Positions 27,316 to 33,410 of a stretch of DNA of 33,410 nucleotides are shown in pieces (positions within the stretch are counted from its first letter, which is position 1; every line of letters begins with the position of its first letter). The stretch lies in the NCBI GenBank assembly GCA_947647735.1, contig CANSLJ010000037.1, positions 1-33,410 of the forward strand. The letters run 5' to 3'. Below the pieces are notes generated by a model. That model was not told where the DNA came from. It did not search any database and was given only the letters and a program-made list of their open reading frames with translations. The stretch comes from an uncultured bacterium. Lineage in GTDB: Bacteria > Bacillota > Clostridia > Lachnospirales > Lachnospiraceae. A program made the translations under genes and the position numbers.

Positions 27316-28401
27316 ATGAGCGAAAAATTACGTGTAGGAATCTTAGGCGGAACCGGTATGGTAGGGCAGAGGTTTATCTCCCTGCTGGAGAACCATCCCT
27401 GGTTTGAGGTGACAACGATCGCGGCGAGCCCCCGTTCAGCGGGCAAAACTTATGAGGAAGCCGTGGGCGGCAGGTGGAAAATGAAAACACCGATGCCGGA
27501 GGGTGTGAAAAACATTGTTGTCATGAATGTCAATGAAGTGGAAAAAGTGGCTTCTGAGGTGGACTTTGTCTTCTCGGCTGTGGATATGAGCAAGGACGAG
27601 ATCAAAGCGATCGAGGAGGCTTATGCCAAAACAGAGACCCCAGTTGTTTCCAATAACAGTGCCCACAGATGGACGCCGGATGTGCCCATGGTGGTGCCGG
27701 AGATCAACACAGAGCATTTTGAGGTGATCAAGGACCAGAGAAAGCGCCTTGGCACGGAGAGAGGCTTTGTAGCGGTAAAACCCAACTGTTCGATCCAGAG
27801 TTATGCGCCGGTGCTGACAGCATGGATGGAGTTCGAGCCCTATGAGGTGGTTGCGACAACCTATCAGGCGATCTCCGGTGCGGGCAAGACCTTTAAGGAC
27901 TGGCCTGAGATGGTGGAAAATGTGATCCCCTATATCGGCGGAGAGGAGGAAAAGAGTGAGAAAGAGCCTCTGCGTATCTGGGGCAAGGTGGAAGGCGGCG
28001 TGATCGTGCCGGCGGAGAGTCCTGTGATCACCTGTCAGTGTGTCCGTGTGCCTGTACTGGACGGCCATACGGCGGCAGTGTTTGTGAAGTTCAGGAAGAA
28101 CCCCACGAAGGAACAGCTGATCGAAAAGCTGAGAAACTTTACAGGGGAACCCCAGAAGCTGGAGCTGCCCAGCGCGCCGAAACAGTTTATCCAGTATCTG
28201 GAGGAGGACAACAGGCCTCAGGTGAAACTGGATGTGGATTATGAAAACGGCATGGGCGTCAGTGTGGGACGGCTTCGTGAGGACAGCGTCTATGACTGGA
28301 AGTTTATCGGCCTTTCTCATAATACAGTAAGAGGTGCGGCAGGCGGTGCCGTGCTCTGCGCGGAGATGCTGAAAGCGAAAGGATATATCGTAAGGAAATA
28401 A
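27316..28401 (+). CDS. asd: aspartate-semialdehyde dehydrogenase, archaeal/fungal-type
   Basis: Reduces aspartyl phosphate to aspartate semialdehyde, the branch point to lysine/diaminopimelate, threonine and methionine. The 361-residue protein has the NADP loop GILGGTGMVGQRF (8-20), the catalytic Cys158 in VKPNCSIQS and His251 in LDGHTAAVFV. The pattern SNNSAHRW and the extra KDWPEMVENVIPYIGGEEEK segment fit the longer archaeal/fungal branch rather than the E. coli type. AGAGGAG precedes ATG 27316. It is followed by topB after about 106 bases without a recognisable gene. Confidence 0.95.
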   Translation: MSEKLRVGILGGTGMVGQRFISLLENHPWFEVTTIAASPRSAGKTYEEAVGGRWKMKTPMPEGVKNIVVMNVNEVEKVASEVDFVFSAVDMSKDEIKAIEEAYAKTETPVVSNNSAHRWTPDVPMVVPEINTEHFEVIKDQRKRLGTERGFVAVKPNCSIQSYAPVLTAWMEFEPYEVVATTYQAISGAGKTFKDWPEMVENVIPYIGGEEEKSEKEPLRIWGKVEGGVIVPAESPVITCQCVRVPVLDGHTAAVFVKFRKNPTKEQLIEKLRNFTGEPQKLELPSAPKQFIQYLEEDNRPQVKLDVDYENGMGVSVGRLREDSVYDWKFIGLSHNTVRGAAGGAVLCAEMLKAKGYIVRK

Positions 28402-28507
28402 TAGAACGCAGCAGGAAGAAATCGGGCGTTCCCGGGCCGCAGGCAGCAGCCGGGCGGATCGGATATGCGGACTGTTTTGCAGCGGTTCGCTTTGTTGGAT
28501 GGTGTGA

Positions 28508-30565
28508 ATGGAGAAAAGTTTATATATTGCGGAAAAGCCCAGCGTAGCGCAGGAGTTTGCGAAGGCGCTGAAGCTGAACATGACCAGGAGGGACGGTTAT
28601 CTGGAATCGGAAGAAGCCGTTGTGACCTGGTGCGTGGGGCATCTTGTGACAATGAGCTACCCTGACGCATATGACGAGAAGTATAAGAGGTGGTCGCTGG
28701 AAACGATACCTTTTATACCGGATGAATATCTGTATGAAGTGATTCCGGGGGTGGCAAAGCAGTTCAAGATCGTCAGCGGGCTTTTGAACAGAAAAGATAT
28801 AACAACGATTTATGTCTGTACGGACTCCGGGCGGGAGGGTGAATACATATACCGACTGGTGGAACAGCAGGCAGGCGTAAAAGGAAAAACAAGAAAACGG
28901 GTGTGGATCGATTCCCAGACGGAGGAGGAGATCCTCCGGGGCATCCGGGAGGCAAAGGATCTGTCGGAGTACGACAATCTCTGTGCCTCCGCTTATCTGC
29001 GCGCTAAAGAGGATTATCTGATGGGTATCAATTTTTCCCGGGCGCTGACGCTGAAATTCGGTTATCCGGTGAAAAACTATATGCATACAGATAAGTGTGT
29101 GGTGTCTGTCGGGCGTGTCATGACCTGCGTGCTGGGCATGGTGGTGAGCAGGGAGCGTGAGATCAGGAATTTTGTGAAAACGCCGTTTTACCGGGTGCTG
29201 GCGGATGTGGATCTGGAGGGAAAACAGTTTTCCGGTGAGTGGAGAGTCTGGGAAGAGTCAAAATATGCGGGCTTTCCGGGATTGTATAAGGAAAACGGGT
29301 TTTTAAAGAAGGAGGACGCGGAAGGGCTGATCGGTCTTGTCAGCGGTGAGGACGGGATCGTTCATTCCGTTGAAAGAAAAAAGGAAGCGAAAAATCCGCC
29401 GCTTCTGTATAATCTGGCAGAGCTGCAGAATGACTGTTCCAGATATTTTAAGATCAGTCCGGATCAGACATTGCAGGTGGTGCAGGAATTATATGAGAAA
29501 AAGCTGGTGACTTATCCGAGGACCGATGCCAGAGTGTTATCCAGCGCTGTGGCGAAGGAGATAGCGAAGAATATCGGTGGATTGAGAAACTATACTGTAT
29601 GTGGCAAACTGGCGGAAGAGGTATTGACCGGGGGAAGCTATAAAAAGATCGCATCCACGAAATATACGAATGATAAGCAGATCACGGACCATTATGCGAT
29701 CATTCCCACAGGACAGGGACTGGCGGCGCTGAGAGGGCTTGCGCCTGTATCCCAGAAAGTCTATGAAGTCATCGTCAGGCGTTTTCTGGCTATTTTTTAT
29801 CCGCCGGCGGTGTACCAGAAGGTGTCGCTGGTGACGGAGGTAAAGAAAGAGCGGTTTTACAGCAGTTTTAAGGTATTGAAAGAGGAAGGATATCTGCCTG
29901 TGACGAAGTTTTCCTTCTGGAAGGACAAAAAGGCATCAGAATCAGGCGGATCAGCACCGGCTTCCGAGGACGGCAGCAAGGATGCCGGGAACGGTAAAGC
30001 TGTGGCGGAAGGAGAAGCTCAGGAAGAGAGCTGTGACGAAGCACTTCTCACGGCACTCTCCAAATTGAGGAAGGGAGACCGTATCAGTTATCACGGTTTT
30101 TCCATCAAGGCGGGCGAGACTTCTCCGCCGAAACGTTATAATTCCGGCAGCATGATACTGGCGATGGAGAATGCGGGACAGCTCATCGAGGATGAGGAGC
30201 TGCGGGCCCAGATCAAGGGTTCCGGCATCGGTACTTCCGCAACGAGGGCGGAGATCCTGAAAAAACTGGTCAATATCAAATATCTGATGCTGAATAAAAA
30301 GACGCAGATCATCACCCCCACCTTTCTGGGAGAGATTATCTATGAAGTGGTGGACAATGCGATGAAGCCGCTTTTGGACCCAAGGCTTACAGCGAGCTGG
30401 GAAAAGGGACTGACACAGGTGTCAGAAGGAACTATCACTTCGGAGGAGTATATGCGGAAGCTGGATGATTTTATCACAAGGCGGACGAATATCGTGAAGC
30501 AGGTCAGAAATCAGACGGCGCTCTATCCAGCATTTGATAAGTTTGCGGGGTACTATAAAGGGTGA
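28508..30565 (+). CDS. topB: type IA DNA topoisomerase, TopB-like (topoisomerase III)
   Basis: Single-strand passing topoisomerase, 685 residues. The Toprim domain has Glu9 (IAEKPSVA) and TDSGREGE (105-112; the second Asp of D-x-D is Gly, a form also known in Gram-positive TopB). The gate region VGRVMTCVLGMV departs from the usual GRVQTPTL. The active-site Tyr336 is in LVTYPRTD with Arg338. An unusual low-complexity Gly/Ser/Ala/Glu insert (about 476-508) precedes the last core segment with SGIGTSATRAEIL. No C-terminal zinc fingers are present. No conjugation genes adjoin, so this looks chromosomal rather than part of an integrative element. The ribosome binding site is weak (GGATGG). Confidence 0.92.
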   Translation: MEKSLYIAEKPSVAQEFAKALKLNMTRRDGYLESEEAVVTWCVGHLVTMSYPDAYDEKYKRWSLETIPFIPDEYLYEVIPGVAKQFKIVSGLLNRKDITTIYVCTDSGREGEYIYRLVEQQAGVKGKTRKRVWIDSQTEEEILRGIREAKDLSEYDNLCASAYLRAKEDYLMGINFSRALTLKFGYPVKNYMHTDKCVVSVGRVMTCVLGMVVSREREIRNFVKTPFYRVLADVDLEGKQFSGEWRVWEESKYAGFPGLYKENGFLKKEDAEGLIGLVSGEDGIVHSVERKKEAKNPPLLYNLAELQNDCSRYFKISPDQTLQVVQELYEKKLVTYPRTDARVLSSAVAKEIAKNIGGLRNYTVCGKLAEEVLTGGSYKKIASTKYTNDKQITDHYAIIPTGQGLAALRGLAPVSQKVYEVIVRRFLAIFYPPAVYQKVSLVTEVKKERFYSSFKVLKEEGYLPVTKFSFWKDKKASESGGSAPASEDGSKDAGNGKAVAEGEAQEESCDEALLTALSKLRKGDRISYHGFSIKAGETSPPKRYNSGSMILAMENAGQLIEDEELRAQIKGSGIGTSATRAEILKKLVNIKYLMLNKKTQIITPTFLGEIIYEVVDNAMKPLLDPRLTASWEKGLTQVSEGTITSEEYMRKLDDFITRRTNIVKQVRNQTALYPAFDKFAGYYKG

Positions 30566-30599
30566 TCACATCATAAGATATAGAAAGAAGGATAAAGAC

Positions 30600-31274
30600 A
30601 TGGTGAAAATGGAACAGGCAACAATTGCGGCATTGTATACGTTGGATGAGACGATCGCGAAGGAGCTTTTTGACGGGCTGACGTACCCCTGGGAGGCGCT
30701 GCCGCTGATCAAGGATTTTATTATAAAACTGGGACAGAGCCTGCCGGAAGACAGATATGAGCAGGTAAAAGAGAATGTCTGGGTGGCAAAGTCGGCGAAT
30801 GTGTATCCGTCCGCGTACATAAACGGTCCCGCTATCATTGACGAGGAGGCGGAGGTACGCCACTGTGCGTTTATCCGCGGGAATGCGATCGTTGGAAAGA
30901 AGGCGGTGGTGGGAAATTCCACGGAACTGAAAAATGTAGTGCTGTTCAATAATGTGCAGGTGCCCCACTATAACTATGTGGGCGACAGCATATTAGGTTA
31001 CAAGGCGCATATGGGCGCAGGCTCCATCACCTCCAATGTGAAGAGCGACAAGACACTGGTTGTGGTGAAGAACGGGGAGGAGCAGATTGAGACAGGACTC
31101 AAAAAGTTCGGTGCCATGGTCGGTGATAACGTGGAAGTGGGCTGTAACAGCGTGTTGAATCCGGGTACGGTGATCGGCAGGGAGACAAATATCTATCCGA
31201 CGTCCATGGTGCGCGGAGTGGTTCCGGAGCACAGTATTTTCAAGAGTGCAGGGAACATTGTGCAGAAACATTGA
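30600..31274 (+). CDS. left-handed beta-helix (hexapeptide) acyltransferase-like protein
   Basis: A 224-residue protein whose second half (about 65-224) is built of hexapeptide repeats such as VWVAKSANVYPSAYINGPAIID, FIRGNAIVGKKAVVGNS and GAMVGDNVEVGCNSVLNPGTVIG. This is the fold of GlmU C-termini and other acyl- or acetyltransferases. The N-terminal 60 residues are helical and lack a nucleotidyltransferase motif, so it is not a full GlmU even though such proteins are often named UDP-N-acetylglucosamine pyrophosphorylase. The start at ATG 30600 follows AAGAAGGA; the open frame from 30534 overlaps topB and is unsupported. Substrate unknown. Confidence 0.82.
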   Translation: MVKMEQATIAALYTLDETIAKELFDGLTYPWEALPLIKDFIIKLGQSLPEDRYEQVKENVWVAKSANVYPSAYINGPAIIDEEAEVRHCAFIRGNAIVGKKAVVGNSTELKNVVLFNNVQVPHYNYVGDSILGYKAHMGAGSITSNVKSDKTLVVVKNGEEQIETGLKKFGAMVGDNVEVGCNSVLNPGTVIGRETNIYPTSMVRGVVPEHSIFKSAGNIVQKH

Positions 31275-31303
31275 CAGAGATATCATTCTGCGGCATTAAA
31301 AAA

Positions 31304-31318
31304 TTACAATATTTGTAA
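31304..31318. promoter_or_regulatory. operator-like palindrome upstream of the NifU-like gene
   Basis: TTACAA-TAT-TTGTAA. A matching half, TTACAAATATT, lies at 31395-31405 and is the exact complement of AATATTTGTAA at 31308-31318. It may be a repressor site or a long-range RNA stem. No clear promoter could be assigned in this 154-base gap. Confidence 0.4.
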
Positions 31319-31369
31319 AGTGGGACTGGATTTTTTGTCGAATATATGCGAAAATAATAAGAGCGGTTA

Positions 31370-31397
31370 TAACAGGGGACAAGCACACCTCCTGTTA
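31370..31397 (+). promoter_or_regulatory. leader hairpin before the NifU-like gene
   Basis: TAACAGG (31370-31376) pairs with CCTGTTA (31391-31397), and inner GG/CC pairs past one bulged base. It lies 32 bases before the start codon and just ahead of the GAAGGAG ribosome binding site, so it may stabilise or regulate the transcript. Confidence 0.45.
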
Positions 31398-31428
31398 CAA
31401 ATATTTATATTATGGAAGGAGTTTTCAC

Positions 31429-32124
31429 ATGATAATCTATTCTAAAGAAGTTGAAGAAATGTGTACCGTGGCACAGGGCGTTCACCATGGCTGTGCTCCC
31501 ATCCCGGAAGAGGCAAAATGGGTGCAGGCTAAAAAAGTGGAAGATATTTCCGGTCTGACACATGGTGTTGGCTGGTGTGCACCGCAGCAGGGAGCATGTA
31601 AGCTGACTCTGAATGTCAAGGAAGGTATCATTCAGGAAGCACTGGTTGAGACGATCGGTTGTTCAGGTATGACACATTCCGCAGCTATGGCATCCGAGAT
31701 CCTGCCGGGCCTGACTGTAATGGAAGCATTGAATACTGACCTTGTATGTGATGCGATCAATACAGCGATGAGAGAACTGTTCTTACAGATCGTATACGGC
31801 CGTTCCCAGAGCGCATTCTCTGAAGACGGACTGCCTGTAGGCGCTGGTCTGGAAGACCTTGGCAAGGGCTTGAGAAGCCAGGTTGGTACAATGTATGGTA
31901 CATTAAAGAAAGGTCCTCGTTATCTGGAAATGGCGGAAGGATATGTAACAGGTATCGCTCTGGATGCAAATGATGAGATTATCGGTTATAAGTTCGTCAG
32001 TCTCGGCAAGATGACTGACTTTATCAAGAAGGGTGACGATCCTAATACAGCATGGGAAAAGGCAAGCGGACAGTACGGTCGTGTGGATGACGCTGTAAAG
32101 ATCATTGACCCGAGAAAAGAATAA
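31429..32124 (+). CDS. NifU-like iron-sulfur scaffold protein
   Basis: The 231-residue protein has an IscU/NifU N-terminal-like core (about 45-130): CAPQQGACKLTL, the following NVKEGIIQEALVETIGCSGMTHS and LPGLTVMEAL. The cysteines are Cys12, 22, 50, 57, 78 and 107. Compared with classical IscU, Cys57 and Cys78 match the first two scaffold cysteines, but the Asp beside the first and the usual third Cys in HCS are not seen. Additional cysteines occur at the N-terminus. This suggests a related but different cluster- or metal-binding role. It sits 20 bases before the GGGtGRT gene in one unit, and its codon choice differs from the flanking genes in a way typical of high expression. GAAGGAG precedes ATG 31429. 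Confidence 0.82.
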   Translation: MIIYSKEVEEMCTVAQGVHHGCAPIPEEAKWVQAKKVEDISGLTHGVGWCAPQQGACKLTLNVKEGIIQEALVETIGCSGMTHSAAMASEILPGLTVMEALNTDLVCDAINTAMRELFLQIVYGRSQSAFSEDGLPVGAGLEDLGKGLRSQVGTMYGTLKKGPRYLEMAEGYVTGIALDANDEIIGYKFVSLGKMTDFIKKGDDPNTAWEKASGQYGRVDDAVKIIDPRKE

Positions 32125-32144
32125 GGAATAGGAGGAATGTAAAA

Positions 32145-33155
32145 ATGGCATTATTTGAATCTTATGAAAGAAGAATTGACAAGATCAATTCCGTTTTAAA
32201 TGAGTACGGCATTTCTTCTATCGAAGAAGCTGAGAAAATTACAAAAGACGCCGGACTGGATGTTTATGATCAGGTTAAGAAGATACAGCCGATCTGCTTT
32301 GAGAATGCATGCTGGGCTTACACGGTAGGCGCAGCTATCGCGATCAAAAAAGGCTGCCGTAAAGCGGCGGATGCAGCAGCAGCGATCGGTGAAGGACTGC
32401 AGGCTTTCTGCATTCCCGGTTCCGTTGCAGATACCCGTAAGGTAGGCCTTGGACATGGTAATCTGGGCAAGATGCTTCTGGAAGAAGATACAGACTGTTT
32501 CGCATTCCTGGCAGGCCATGAGTCCTTCGCAGCAGCAGAAGGTGCTATCGGCATTGCAGAGAAGGCTAACAAAGTTCGTCAGAAACCGCTCCGTGTTATC
32601 TTAAACGGACTTGGAAAAGACGCAGCAAAGGTTATCTCCAGAATCAACGGATTTACTTTTGTTGAGACAGAATATGATCCTTACACAAACGAAGTAAAAG
32701 AACTGTTCAGAACCTCTTATTCCGAGGGACTTCGTGCAAAAGTAAACTGCTATGGCGCAAACTCCGTGCCGGAAGGCGTTGCGATCATGTGGAAAGAGAA
32801 CGTAGATGTTTCCATCACAGGTAACTCCACAAACCCGACAAGGTTCCAGCATCCTGTAGCAGGTACATACAAGAAAGAAAGAACAGAAGCAGGGAAGAAA
32901 TACTTCTCCGTAGCTTCCGGCGGCGGTACAGGACGTACTCTGCATCCCGATAACATGGCTGCAGGCCCCGCTTCCTACGGCTTTACCGACACATTGGGAC
33001 GTATGCACTCTGATGCACAGTTTGCAGGTTCTTCTTCCGTACCGGCTCACGTTGAGATGATGGGACTGATCGGTATGGGTAATAACCCGATGGTAGGTGC
33101 TACCGTTGCGGTTGCGGTTTCGATTGAGGAAGCAGCGAAAGAAGGCAAATTTTAA
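32145..33155 (+). CDS. GGGtGRT-family protein
   Basis: The 336-residue protein carries the family-defining GGGTGRT motif at 259-265 (VASGGGTGRTLHPDN). The family (named for this motif) has no assigned biochemical function and is found mostly in anaerobes. Other notable features are Cys51-x4-Cys56 (CFENACW), Cys71, Cys89, Cys118 and Cys202, the Gly/Ala-rich helices around 60-85, and GLGHGNLGKM (101-110). There is no signal peptide or clear membrane segment, so it is probably cytosolic. It lies directly after the NifU-like gene, as I recall from other gut anaerobes, which implies a joint role in iron-sulfur or metal handling. A strong terminator follows. GGAGGAAT precedes ATG 32145. Confidence 0.88.
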   Translation: MALFESYERRIDKINSVLNEYGISSIEEAEKITKDAGLDVYDQVKKIQPICFENACWAYTVGAAIAIKKGCRKAADAAAAIGEGLQAFCIPGSVADTRKVGLGHGNLGKMLLEEDTDCFAFLAGHESFAAAEGAIGIAEKANKVRQKPLRVILNGLGKDAAKVISRINGFTFVETEYDPYTNEVKELFRTSYSEGLRAKVNCYGANSVPEGVAIMWKENVDVSITGNSTNPTRFQHPVAGTYKKERTEAGKKYFSVASGGGTGRTLHPDNMAAGPASYGFTDTLGRMHSDAQFAGSSSVPAHVEMMGLIGMGNNPMVGATVAVAVSIEEAAKEGKF

Positions 33156-33200
33156 ATAATTTGTGTTCAAAAGAGTGAAAATAGAATAAAGTACGAAGAC

Positions 33201-33234
33201 AAACGCCATGATTCTTGTGAATTGTGGCGTTTTT
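33201..33234 (+). terminator. terminator of the NifU-like/GGGtGRT operon
   Basis: A 14-base stem (33201-33214 with 33219-33232) with two G-U pairs, a four-base TTGT loop and five T. It starts 45 bases after the GGGtGRT stop codon. Confidence 0.9.
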
Positions 33235-33325
33235 GCACACAATATCAATGCATTTTCTTTAAAAATTATTGGTTGGAGCGACAAAGGTGTATTTTGAGCT
33301 CCTACTATGGCAAAAGTGAGAAAAG

Positions 33326-33354
33326 CCTGAATCCATGTGGATTCAAGGGTTTTT
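33326..33354. terminator. second stem-loop near the window end
   Basis: CCTGAATCC (33326-33334) pairs with GGATTCAAGG (33339-33348) with one bulged A, followed by a five-T run. No gene end is visible between the previous terminator and this one, so its transcript is unclear. The rest of 33235-33410 holds no gene I can support. Confidence 0.6.
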
Positions 33355-33410
33355 CGTATGGGCTTTAGCCTGTTGAGGGCATTGGAGTTTTTCGTGTTCC
33401 GAAAAATGGA

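What the first reader, a model, noticed from the sequence alone, without database searches (positions are those of the whole stretch)
31429..33155. NifU-like scaffold plus GGGtGRT protein: a two-gene system with no known function
Seen: a two-gene unit (20-base spacing), an operator-like palindrome and leader hairpin ahead of it, a strong terminator behind it, and codon use suggesting high expression. The NifU-like protein lacks the Asp next to the first scaffold Cys and the usual third Cys, but has extra N-terminal cysteines. The partner has six cysteines and the GGGTGRT motif. Known: IscU/NifU scaffolds build Fe-S clusters, while the GGGtGRT family has no assigned role. Inferred: the pair could form an anaerobe-specific iron-sulfur or metal assembly or storage complex, with the GGGtGRT protein as client or carrier.
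Basis: partly seen in the sequence, partly recalled or inferred. Interest (0 to 1): 0.8.

Follow-up and report, generated by a model that had tools for sequence, protein, structure and literature searches.

The report
Likely missing enolase of gut anaerobes
Two neighbouring genes of unknown function, an iron-sulfur-scaffold-like protein and its constant partner, look like a second, unrelated, iron-dependent version of enolase, the sugar-burning enzyme that many gut and rumen bacteria were thought to lack.

Summary
The two-gene unit is real: NifU-like (31429-32124) and GGGtGRT (32145-33155). In 59 of 59 loci returned by GGGtGRT searches the NifU-like gene lies just upstream; in 398 genomes both profiles hit the same 31. 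Several lines suggest the pair performs the enolase reaction. (1) 18 of 398 genomes lack enolase, 11 of them among those 31; of 150 genomes of the window's family 24 lack enolase, 24 lack GGGtGRT, none lacks both. (2) In 9 of 9 pair-positive genomes of family f60 the order is gap-pgk-tpi-gpmI-pair; the window's own genome has gpmI-eno. (3) A fluoride riboswitch lies upstream of the pair in 6 of 44 loci. (4) Published data show the pair up and enolase down with iron in Clostridium pasteurianum, probably also in Bacteroides thetaiotaomicron. Enolase-less anaerobes are an acknowledged puzzle. Catalysis is not shown; the Fe-S mechanism is inferred. Ten sampled genomes lack both. The window's genome also has canonical enolase.

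The parts
31429..32124 (+). NifU-like gene (231 aa): IscU-like N-terminal half plus a C-terminal extension; invariant Cys50, Cys78, Cys107, His20, His45 in 36 sequences; proposed Fe-S subunit (or dedicated cluster donor) of the enzyme
32145..33155 (+). GGGtGRT gene (PF14057, 336 aa): proposed substrate-binding/catalytic subunit; many invariant His/Asp/Glu/Asn/Arg, no strictly invariant Cys in 32 sequences
31370..31397 (+). leader hairpin, 9-bp stem, ahead of the ribosome-binding site; like hairpins with different stems in some close relatives (by eye)
33201..33234 (+). terminator-like hairpin (14 pairs with G-U) and T run behind the unit; not listed by the terminator scan

Best explanation
The NifU-like protein and GGGtGRT together form an alternative, iron-dependent enolase (2-phosphoglycerate to phosphoenolpyruvate + H2O), unrelated in sequence to the universal Mg2+ enolase. 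Most likely way of working (inferred): the NifU-like subunit holds a [4Fe-4S] cluster on its three invariant cysteines (50, 78, 107), leaving one iron open; GGGtGRT binds the phospho-substrate through its conserved region 223-318; the open iron acts as Lewis acid on the C3 hydroxyl, as in aconitase-type dehydratases. Cells with iron use the pair; cells short of iron, and lineages without the pair, use the Mg2+ enzyme. Because classical enolase is poisoned by fluoride (recalled), the pair also serves as a fluoride-tolerant backup under fluoride riboswitches. Shown here: co-occurrence, adjacency, enolase complementarity, operon position, riboswitches upstream. Reported by others: the iron response. 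Inferred: the catalysis, the cluster, fluoride tolerance.
For: Pair constancy: 59 of 59 loci (the best of 41 and 32 matches) have the NifU-like gene upstream; the same 31 of 398 genomes carry both. Complementarity: in 398 genomes of the phylum 18 lack PF00113, 11 of them in the 31 pair-positive genomes and 7 in the 367 others (Fisher p 2.2e-9, not corrected for phylogeny); completeness figures predict 0.6 missing among the 31; the 11 lie in six families. In 150 genomes of the window's family: 102 have both, 24 only GGGtGRT, 24 only enolase, none neither (chance P 0.010; partial matches counted as present); in the 24 enolase-less ones the two genes are adjacent and open, with one shortened copy (G191 and G263 are L135 and L138). 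Of 33 enolase-less pair-positive genomes (of 35 in all samples) 31 keep phosphoglycerate mutase iPGM and 21 pyruvate kinase. Position: gap-pgk-tpi-gpmI-NifU-GGGtGRT in 9 of 9 pair-positive f60 genomes, pyk behind it in 2; gpmI-pair (L274, L092) or tpi-pair (L268) in other loci, L274 and L268 from enolase-less genomes of the window's family; the window's own genome has gpmI-eno (families of example genes checked). Fluoride: RF01734 upstream of the pair on the same strand in 6 of 44 loci scanned, directly before it in L241 (about 30 bases) and Vibrio L152 (112 bases); crcB follows the pair in L223, L226, L241 (Pfam) and L242 (by similarity). Iron: C. pasteurianum GGGtGRT 7.1-fold and NifU-related spots 2.4- and 3.7-fold higher with iron in early phase, enolase spots 4.1- and 4.8-fold higher without (PMC5395762); B. 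thetaiotaomicron BT0173-74 down 11 to 12.8-fold under iron depletion, the gene group containing eno up 2.0-7.7-fold (PMC10434189).
Against: No activity, cluster or structure is shown. B. proteoclasticus, which lacks enolase, gave only very low enolase activity in extracts (PMC2914790; the passages seen state no anaerobic assay, so an oxygen-sensitive enzyme could have been missed, but that is my reading); whether that strain has the pair was not tested here. One enolase-less, 100%-complete genome (G556, L275) has a GGGtGRT gene with an in-frame gap of about 32 residues in a conserved region. Ten genomes lack both families: 7 of 398 (completeness 90-97%) and 3 of 61 relatives (G015 96%, G028 67%, G031 60%). 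Canonical enolase is kept elsewhere in 7 of the 9 f60 genomes with the glycolytic position, in the four riboswitch-bearing genomes of the phylum (G441, G229, G144, G370) and in the window's genome. The B. thetaiotaomicron eno row has P 0.144. The family sample alone is only modestly significant because 126 of 150 have GGGtGRT. In Persicobacter L155 a 469-base gap separates the riboswitch-led channel gene from the pair. No fold or sequence match of GGGtGRT to a dehydratase or enolase. Pyruvate kinase is missing in 12 of 33 enolase-less genomes, so lower glycolysis is altered beyond this step.
Confidence: 0.8

Rival explanations
1. One reading: an Fe-S or metal assembly/storage module, NifU-like as scaffold and GGGtGRT as client or carrier.
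For: IscU-fold match, iron-dependent expression, suf operon nearby in Collinsella, three GGGtGRT cysteines kept in 90% or more.
Against: Does not explain enolase complementarity, glycolytic operon position or fluoride riboswitches. The window's genome has a separate canonical NifU beside a desulfurase-like ORF (named by eye). No GGGtGRT cysteine is invariant.
Confidence: 0.06
2. The pair works on 2-phosphoglycerate but not as an enolase: for example it makes pyruvate and phosphate directly, or passes through glycerate, bypassing PEP.
For: Pyruvate kinase is missing in 12 of 33 enolase-less genomes.
Against: 21 of 33 keep pyruvate kinase, and pyk follows the pair in L227 and L229, so PEP is probably made and used; PEP is also needed for biosynthesis (recalled).
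Confidence: 0.07
3. A different iron- and fluoride-related function; the enolase losses reflect another bypass (methylglyoxal shunt, as proposed for Butyrivibrio) and the association comes from shared anaerobic ancestry.
For: Losses cluster in clades rich in the pair; shunt genes are reported for B. proteoclasticus B316 and P. xylanivorans MA3014 (PMC2914790, PMC7523725).
Against: Six families, within-family contrast (f55: 2 of 2 pair-positive lack enolase, 4 of 4 pair-negative have it), operon position and reciprocal iron regulation are not explained; PMC11026938 says that B. proteoclasticus does not appear to encode the shunt and that it would cost ATP.
Confidence: 0.07

Closest known systems
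Enolase (PF00113/PF03952), Mg2+-dependent
   Same: proposed same reaction; same place behind gpmI; associated with fluoride riboswitches (for enolase, recalled); in the family sample each genome has at least one of the two
   Different: no sequence match; the GGGtGRT model gives no reliable PDB match; opposite response to iron; two proteins
IscU/NifU/SufU scaffolds (PF01592)
   Same: weak sequence match and matching fold over about 100 residues of the NifU-like protein
   Different: below the Pfam cut-off and far below the NCBIfam equivalog cut-offs; Asp lost, first Cys replaced, third not matched, own set Cys50/78/107; C-terminal extension; tied to GGGtGRT
GGGtGRT family PF14057
   Same: full-length member
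   Different: nothing; the family has no described function in the papers seen
[4Fe-4S] hydro-lyases (aconitase, L-serine dehydratase, dihydroxyacid dehydratase)
   Same: proposed chemistry: beta-elimination of water with an open cluster iron; L-serine is 2-phosphoglycerate with an amine in place of the phosphate ester (recalled)
   Different: no sequence or fold match found; cluster proposed on an IscU-like subunit

Membership tests
GGGtGRT (PF14057) | curated profile score | tested here: met
   629 bits against 27, residues 4-330
IscU/NifU scaffold (PF01592, NCBIfam NifU_clost/IscU/SufU) | curated profile score | tested here: not met
   20.2 against 22; 23.5 against 187.9
IscU/NifU scaffold | conserved Asp and three scaffold Cys at the canonical places (places recalled) | tested here: not met
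   only the middle Cys (Cys78) aligns; Gln and a gap at the first Cys/Asp
IscU/NifU scaffold | IscU fold | tested here: inconclusive
   Foldseek probability 1.00, E 2.3e-5, but model mean pLDDT 65, pTM 0.45
IscU/NifU scaffold | builds and transfers clusters | not testable with these tools
   needs biochemistry
Enolase (PF00113) | sequence family | tested here: not met
   no match for either protein
Enolase as a function | genomes without canonical enolase carry it | tested here: inconclusive
   24 of 24 in the family sample, 11 of 18 in the phylum sample, 3 of 6 among relatives; most exceptions are incomplete genomes
Enolase as a function | converts 2-phosphoglycerate to PEP | not testable with these tools
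   needs an anaerobic assay
[4Fe-4S] hydro-lyases | sequence or fold of a known family | tested here: not met
   no such match
[4Fe-4S] hydro-lyases | labile cluster with three Cys ligands | not testable with these tools
   three invariant Cys exist; the cluster is inferred

The most novel reading that the evidence does not exclude
A second, evolutionarily independent enolase exists: a two-subunit [4Fe-4S] dehydratase in which an IscU-type scaffold fold has become the catalytic cluster subunit and GGGtGRT the substrate subunit. It would be the main glycolytic enolase of many gut and rumen anaerobes under iron-replete conditions, exchanged for the Mg2+ enzyme when iron is short, and kept by other bacteria such as Vibrio as a fluoride-resistant spare.
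Probability: 0.5. Interest if true: 0.97.

Novelty: categorically new. Interest (0 to 1): 0.93.

Why it matters
[quoted passage not shown] A gene pair carried by most sampled members of the window's family, with or without enolase, could escape such a comparison. If right, this fills a hole in central metabolism, gives a function to a protein family reported as highly expressed in gut bacteria, links glycolysis in gut anaerobes to iron and fluoride supply, and can be tested with one anaerobic assay.

Tried and rejected
Operator palindrome as a conserved control site: rejected. Cysteine-ligated cluster within GGGtGRT: weakened, no invariant Cys, three kept in 90% or more. Other RNA elements: no Rfam match in window 28000-33410 up to E 1, so no fluoride riboswitch was found at the window's own copy; its regulator is unknown. 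Homology of GGGtGRT to a known enzyme: Pfam, NCBIfam, PDB sequence and Foldseek searches gave nothing reliable; the best Foldseek hits by probability, phosphofructokinases (E 0.04, TM 0.24), are too weak to use. Other neighbours: in 47 loci no cluster besides the pair occurs in more than 10 (the pair itself was masked by antisense ORFs in some); ABC ATPases (7 loci) and LysR-type regulators (5; both named by eye) were not followed up. In 152 loci searched for glycolytic genes 16 held any: the 13 told as evidence (9 f60, L274, L268, L092, and L286 for eno) and L079, L251, L255, where they lie 1.3 kb or more away. Replacement for phosphoglycerate mutase rather than enolase: rejected, iPGM is kept in 31 of 33. 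Census in Bacteroidota and other phyla: not possible; only single loci from 8 of the 10 plasmid records found. Literature: one search lists 9 papers with GGGtGRT, of which I saw passages of 8 and only the listing of PMC12014591; none of what I saw links it to enolase. Listings (15 of 32 papers shown; 12 of 310 shown) show no report of this enzyme; the library holds open-licence PMC papers only. Papers were seen as passages found by terms, except one whole section of PMC7523725. The phylum p value ignores phylogeny; no tree was made. No control scan of unrelated loci was made for the riboswitch count.

Full report
What is there. The window ends with two genes on the + strand, 31429-32124 (231 aa) and 32145-33155 (336 aa), 20 bases apart. 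The second is a full-length member of PF14057, GGGtGRT (629 bits, cut-off 27); the first matches NifU_N just below its cut-off (20.2 against 22) and lies far below the NCBIfam scaffold equivalogs. The window's genome has one canonical NifU elsewhere, beside a cysteine-desulfurase-like ORF (named by eye), so the NifU-like protein is probably not its general scaffold. The window's family, f1, is taken to be Lachnospiraceae from the titles of the nearest named records.

Constancy of the pair. The 59 loci returned by GGGtGRT searches (the best of 41 matches and of 32; weaker and partial matches got no locus) all carry the NifU-like gene upstream on the same strand, -1 to 155 bases away by alignment ends. 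In an even sample of 398 genomes of the phylum, GGGtGRT and a NifU-like profile (E up to 1e-10) hit the same 31 genomes; one of them, G249, has two copies of each. In the plasmid collection 10 records hold GGGtGRT; in the 8 opened the pair stands together: Parabacteroides, Bacteroides, Phocaeicola, two Persicobacter, Collinsella and Vibrio outside the phylum, and Subdoligranulum, a Clostridia record. The Vibrio GGGtGRT is still 67% identical to the window's, a level expected of a central enzyme.

Anatomy. Cys78 aligns with the middle IscU cysteine; the usual first Cys and its Asp are replaced by Gln and a gap (IscU roles recalled). The model (mean pLDDT 65, pTM 0.45) matches IscU structures with Foldseek probability 1.00 over about 100 residues. 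In 32 GGGtGRT sequences no cysteine is invariant (89, 118 and 202 are kept in 90% or more), but stretches 124-134, 153-161, 223-236 and 254-318 are wholly or almost so, with many His, Asp, Asn and Arg: this looks more like an active site than a metal store. Its model is good (pTM 0.81) except for residues 227-235 and 258-299, among the most conserved parts, which may need partner, cofactor or substrate to fold (the reason is inference, and a shallow alignment may also be to blame). No solved structure matches reliably.

The clue from neighbours. Across 47 loci there is no general neighbour, but two special contexts recur. In family f60 the pair follows gap-pgk-tpi-gpmI in 9 of 9 pair-positive genomes (L227, L229, L233, L236, L237, L246-L249) and is followed by pyruvate kinase in L227 and L229; gpmI also precedes it in L274 and L092, and tpi in L268 (Pfam checks of examples). 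L274 and L268 come from enolase-less genomes of the window's family. The window's own genome has gpmI followed by canonical eno (L286). So the pair can sit where enolase sits; 7 of the 9 f60 genomes nevertheless keep enolase elsewhere. Secondly, crcB fluoride-exporter genes follow it in L223, L226, L241 (Pfam) and L242 (by similarity), and a fluoride riboswitch (RF01734) stands upstream on the same strand in 6 of 44 loci scanned: directly before the NifU-like gene in L241 and Vibrio L152; before one or two genes and then the pair in L242, L223 and L238; and in Persicobacter L155 before a channel gene (PF00654) that ends 469 bases ahead of the pair. In L238 the NifU-like frame is short (143 aa; stops). 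The four riboswitch-bearing genomes of the phylum also have canonical enolase, as expected of a spare. Enolase is the classical target of fluoride and is itself found under such riboswitches (recalled).

Enolase complementarity. I then asked which genomes lack enolase (PF00113; present in 14 of 14 control genomes). Phylum sample: 18 of 398 lack it, 11 among the 31 with GGGtGRT and 7 among the 367 without (Fisher p 2.2e-9). Stated completeness predicts 0.6 enolase-less genomes among the 31; the 7 others have 90-97% completeness, so gaps could explain them, though two (G098, G138) share one family. The 11 come from six families and include a one-contig genome (G404). Window's family, 150 genomes (149 of at least 97% completeness, plus the window's own at 87%): 126 have GGGtGRT, 126 have enolase, 102 both, 24 only the one, 24 only the other, none neither; chance P 0.010. 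Partial matches count as present, for example a 41-residue GGGtGRT piece in G482 and a 45-residue enolase piece in G564; the 24 enolase-only genomes have near full-length enolase matches, and 23 of the 24 GGGtGRT-only genomes a full-length GGGtGRT match. Relatives sample, 61 genomes: 6 lack enolase, three with GGGtGRT (G013, G038, G053) and three without (G015 at 96%, G028 at 67%, G031 at 60%). The samples overlap in some genomes. In the 24 enolase-less family genomes the two genes are adjacent and open; in one, G556, GGGtGRT lacks about 32 residues in frame. Of 33 enolase-less pair-positive genomes (of 35 found; G038 and G053 not asked) 31 keep iPGM and 21 pyruvate kinase.

Iron. In C. pasteurianum (PMC5395762, passages seen) GGGtGRT is 7.1-fold (early) and 2.2-fold (late) higher with iron and two NifU-related spots 2.4- and 3.7-fold (early), while two spots of canonical enolase are 4.1- and 4.8-fold (early) higher without iron. 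In B. thetaiotaomicron (PMC10434189, passages seen) BT0173-74 falls 11 to 12.8-fold under iron depletion (P given as 0) and the group containing eno rises 2.0-7.7-fold (P 0.144). In the passages seen neither paper connects the two changes. This is the pattern of an iron-costly enzyme exchanged for an iron-free one, like PFOR and PFL in the first paper. GGGtGRT is reported as highly expressed in gut anaerobes in vivo (PMC11204068) and among changing proteins of rumen metaproteomes.

Why it matters. Enolase-less Butyrivibrio, Pseudobutyrivibrio, Prevotella, Lachnospiraceae and Oscillibacter are an open question (PMC2914790, PMC6118326, PMC3558957, PMC7523725, PMC10542786, PMC11026938, PMC11187502; passages seen). 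PMC3558957 considered an alternative enolase-like enzyme. The low enolase activity in B. proteoclasticus extracts is against the idea unless the enzyme died in air; the passages seen give no anaerobic handling of the assay.

Verdict. The pair most likely is, or makes, an iron-dependent enolase (0.8). That the NifU-like protein carries the catalytic [4Fe-4S] cluster is inference from its three invariant cysteines, its fold and the constant pairing (0.5); a dedicated cluster donor for GGGtGRT is the main alternative within the same reading. The window's genome also carries canonical enolase, so here the pair would be one of two.

Noticed in passing
L164, L165, L166, L172, L173, L178, L183, L147, L148, L169, L170, L171 (IMG/VR loci): Many viral contigs carry only about the last 20-60 residues of GGGtGRT. 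In 14 such loci looked at by eye, 12 have a tyrosine-recombinase-like ORF beside the piece; 4 of 4 tested are Pfam Phage_integrase. The 3' end of the gene seems to be a repeatedly used attachment site of prophages or integrative elements.
   Followed up: partly
L275 (G556), L238 (G370): A GGGtGRT gene with an in-frame gap of about 32 residues in an enolase-less genome, and a NifU-like copy cut short to about 143 aa in a genome that has enolase.
   Followed up: partly
G098, G138 (family f71); G015: Genomes of 93-97% completeness that lack both enolase and GGGtGRT; gaps or a third solution.
   Followed up: no
33 enolase-less genomes: Pyruvate kinase (PF00224) is missing in 12 of 33, so further replacement in lower glycolysis is likely, perhaps pyruvate phosphate dikinase (not searched).
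   Followed up: no
L153 7800-7991: In Parabacteroides a 63-aa ORF of unknown function lies between the two genes, with TlpA and OsmC family genes upstream and a nitroreductase family gene downstream.
   Followed up: no
L238 2301-6978: A fluoride riboswitch stands before two ORFs of 512 and 508 aa that look MutS-like (named by eye, not tested), followed by the pair; three more riboswitch matches lie in the same 13 kb.
   Followed up: no
L286 1678-3213: The window genome's own canonical enolase ORF is 512 aa long (mechanical start), with the best Enolase_N stretch starting only at residue 100; its Nc is 47.3 against 41 for the pair.
   Followed up: no
window 31370-31397: Like leader hairpins with quite different stem sequences stand at the same place in some close relatives (L031, L034; by eye), which points to a structural role such as 5' mRNA protection or attenuation.
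   Followed up: partly
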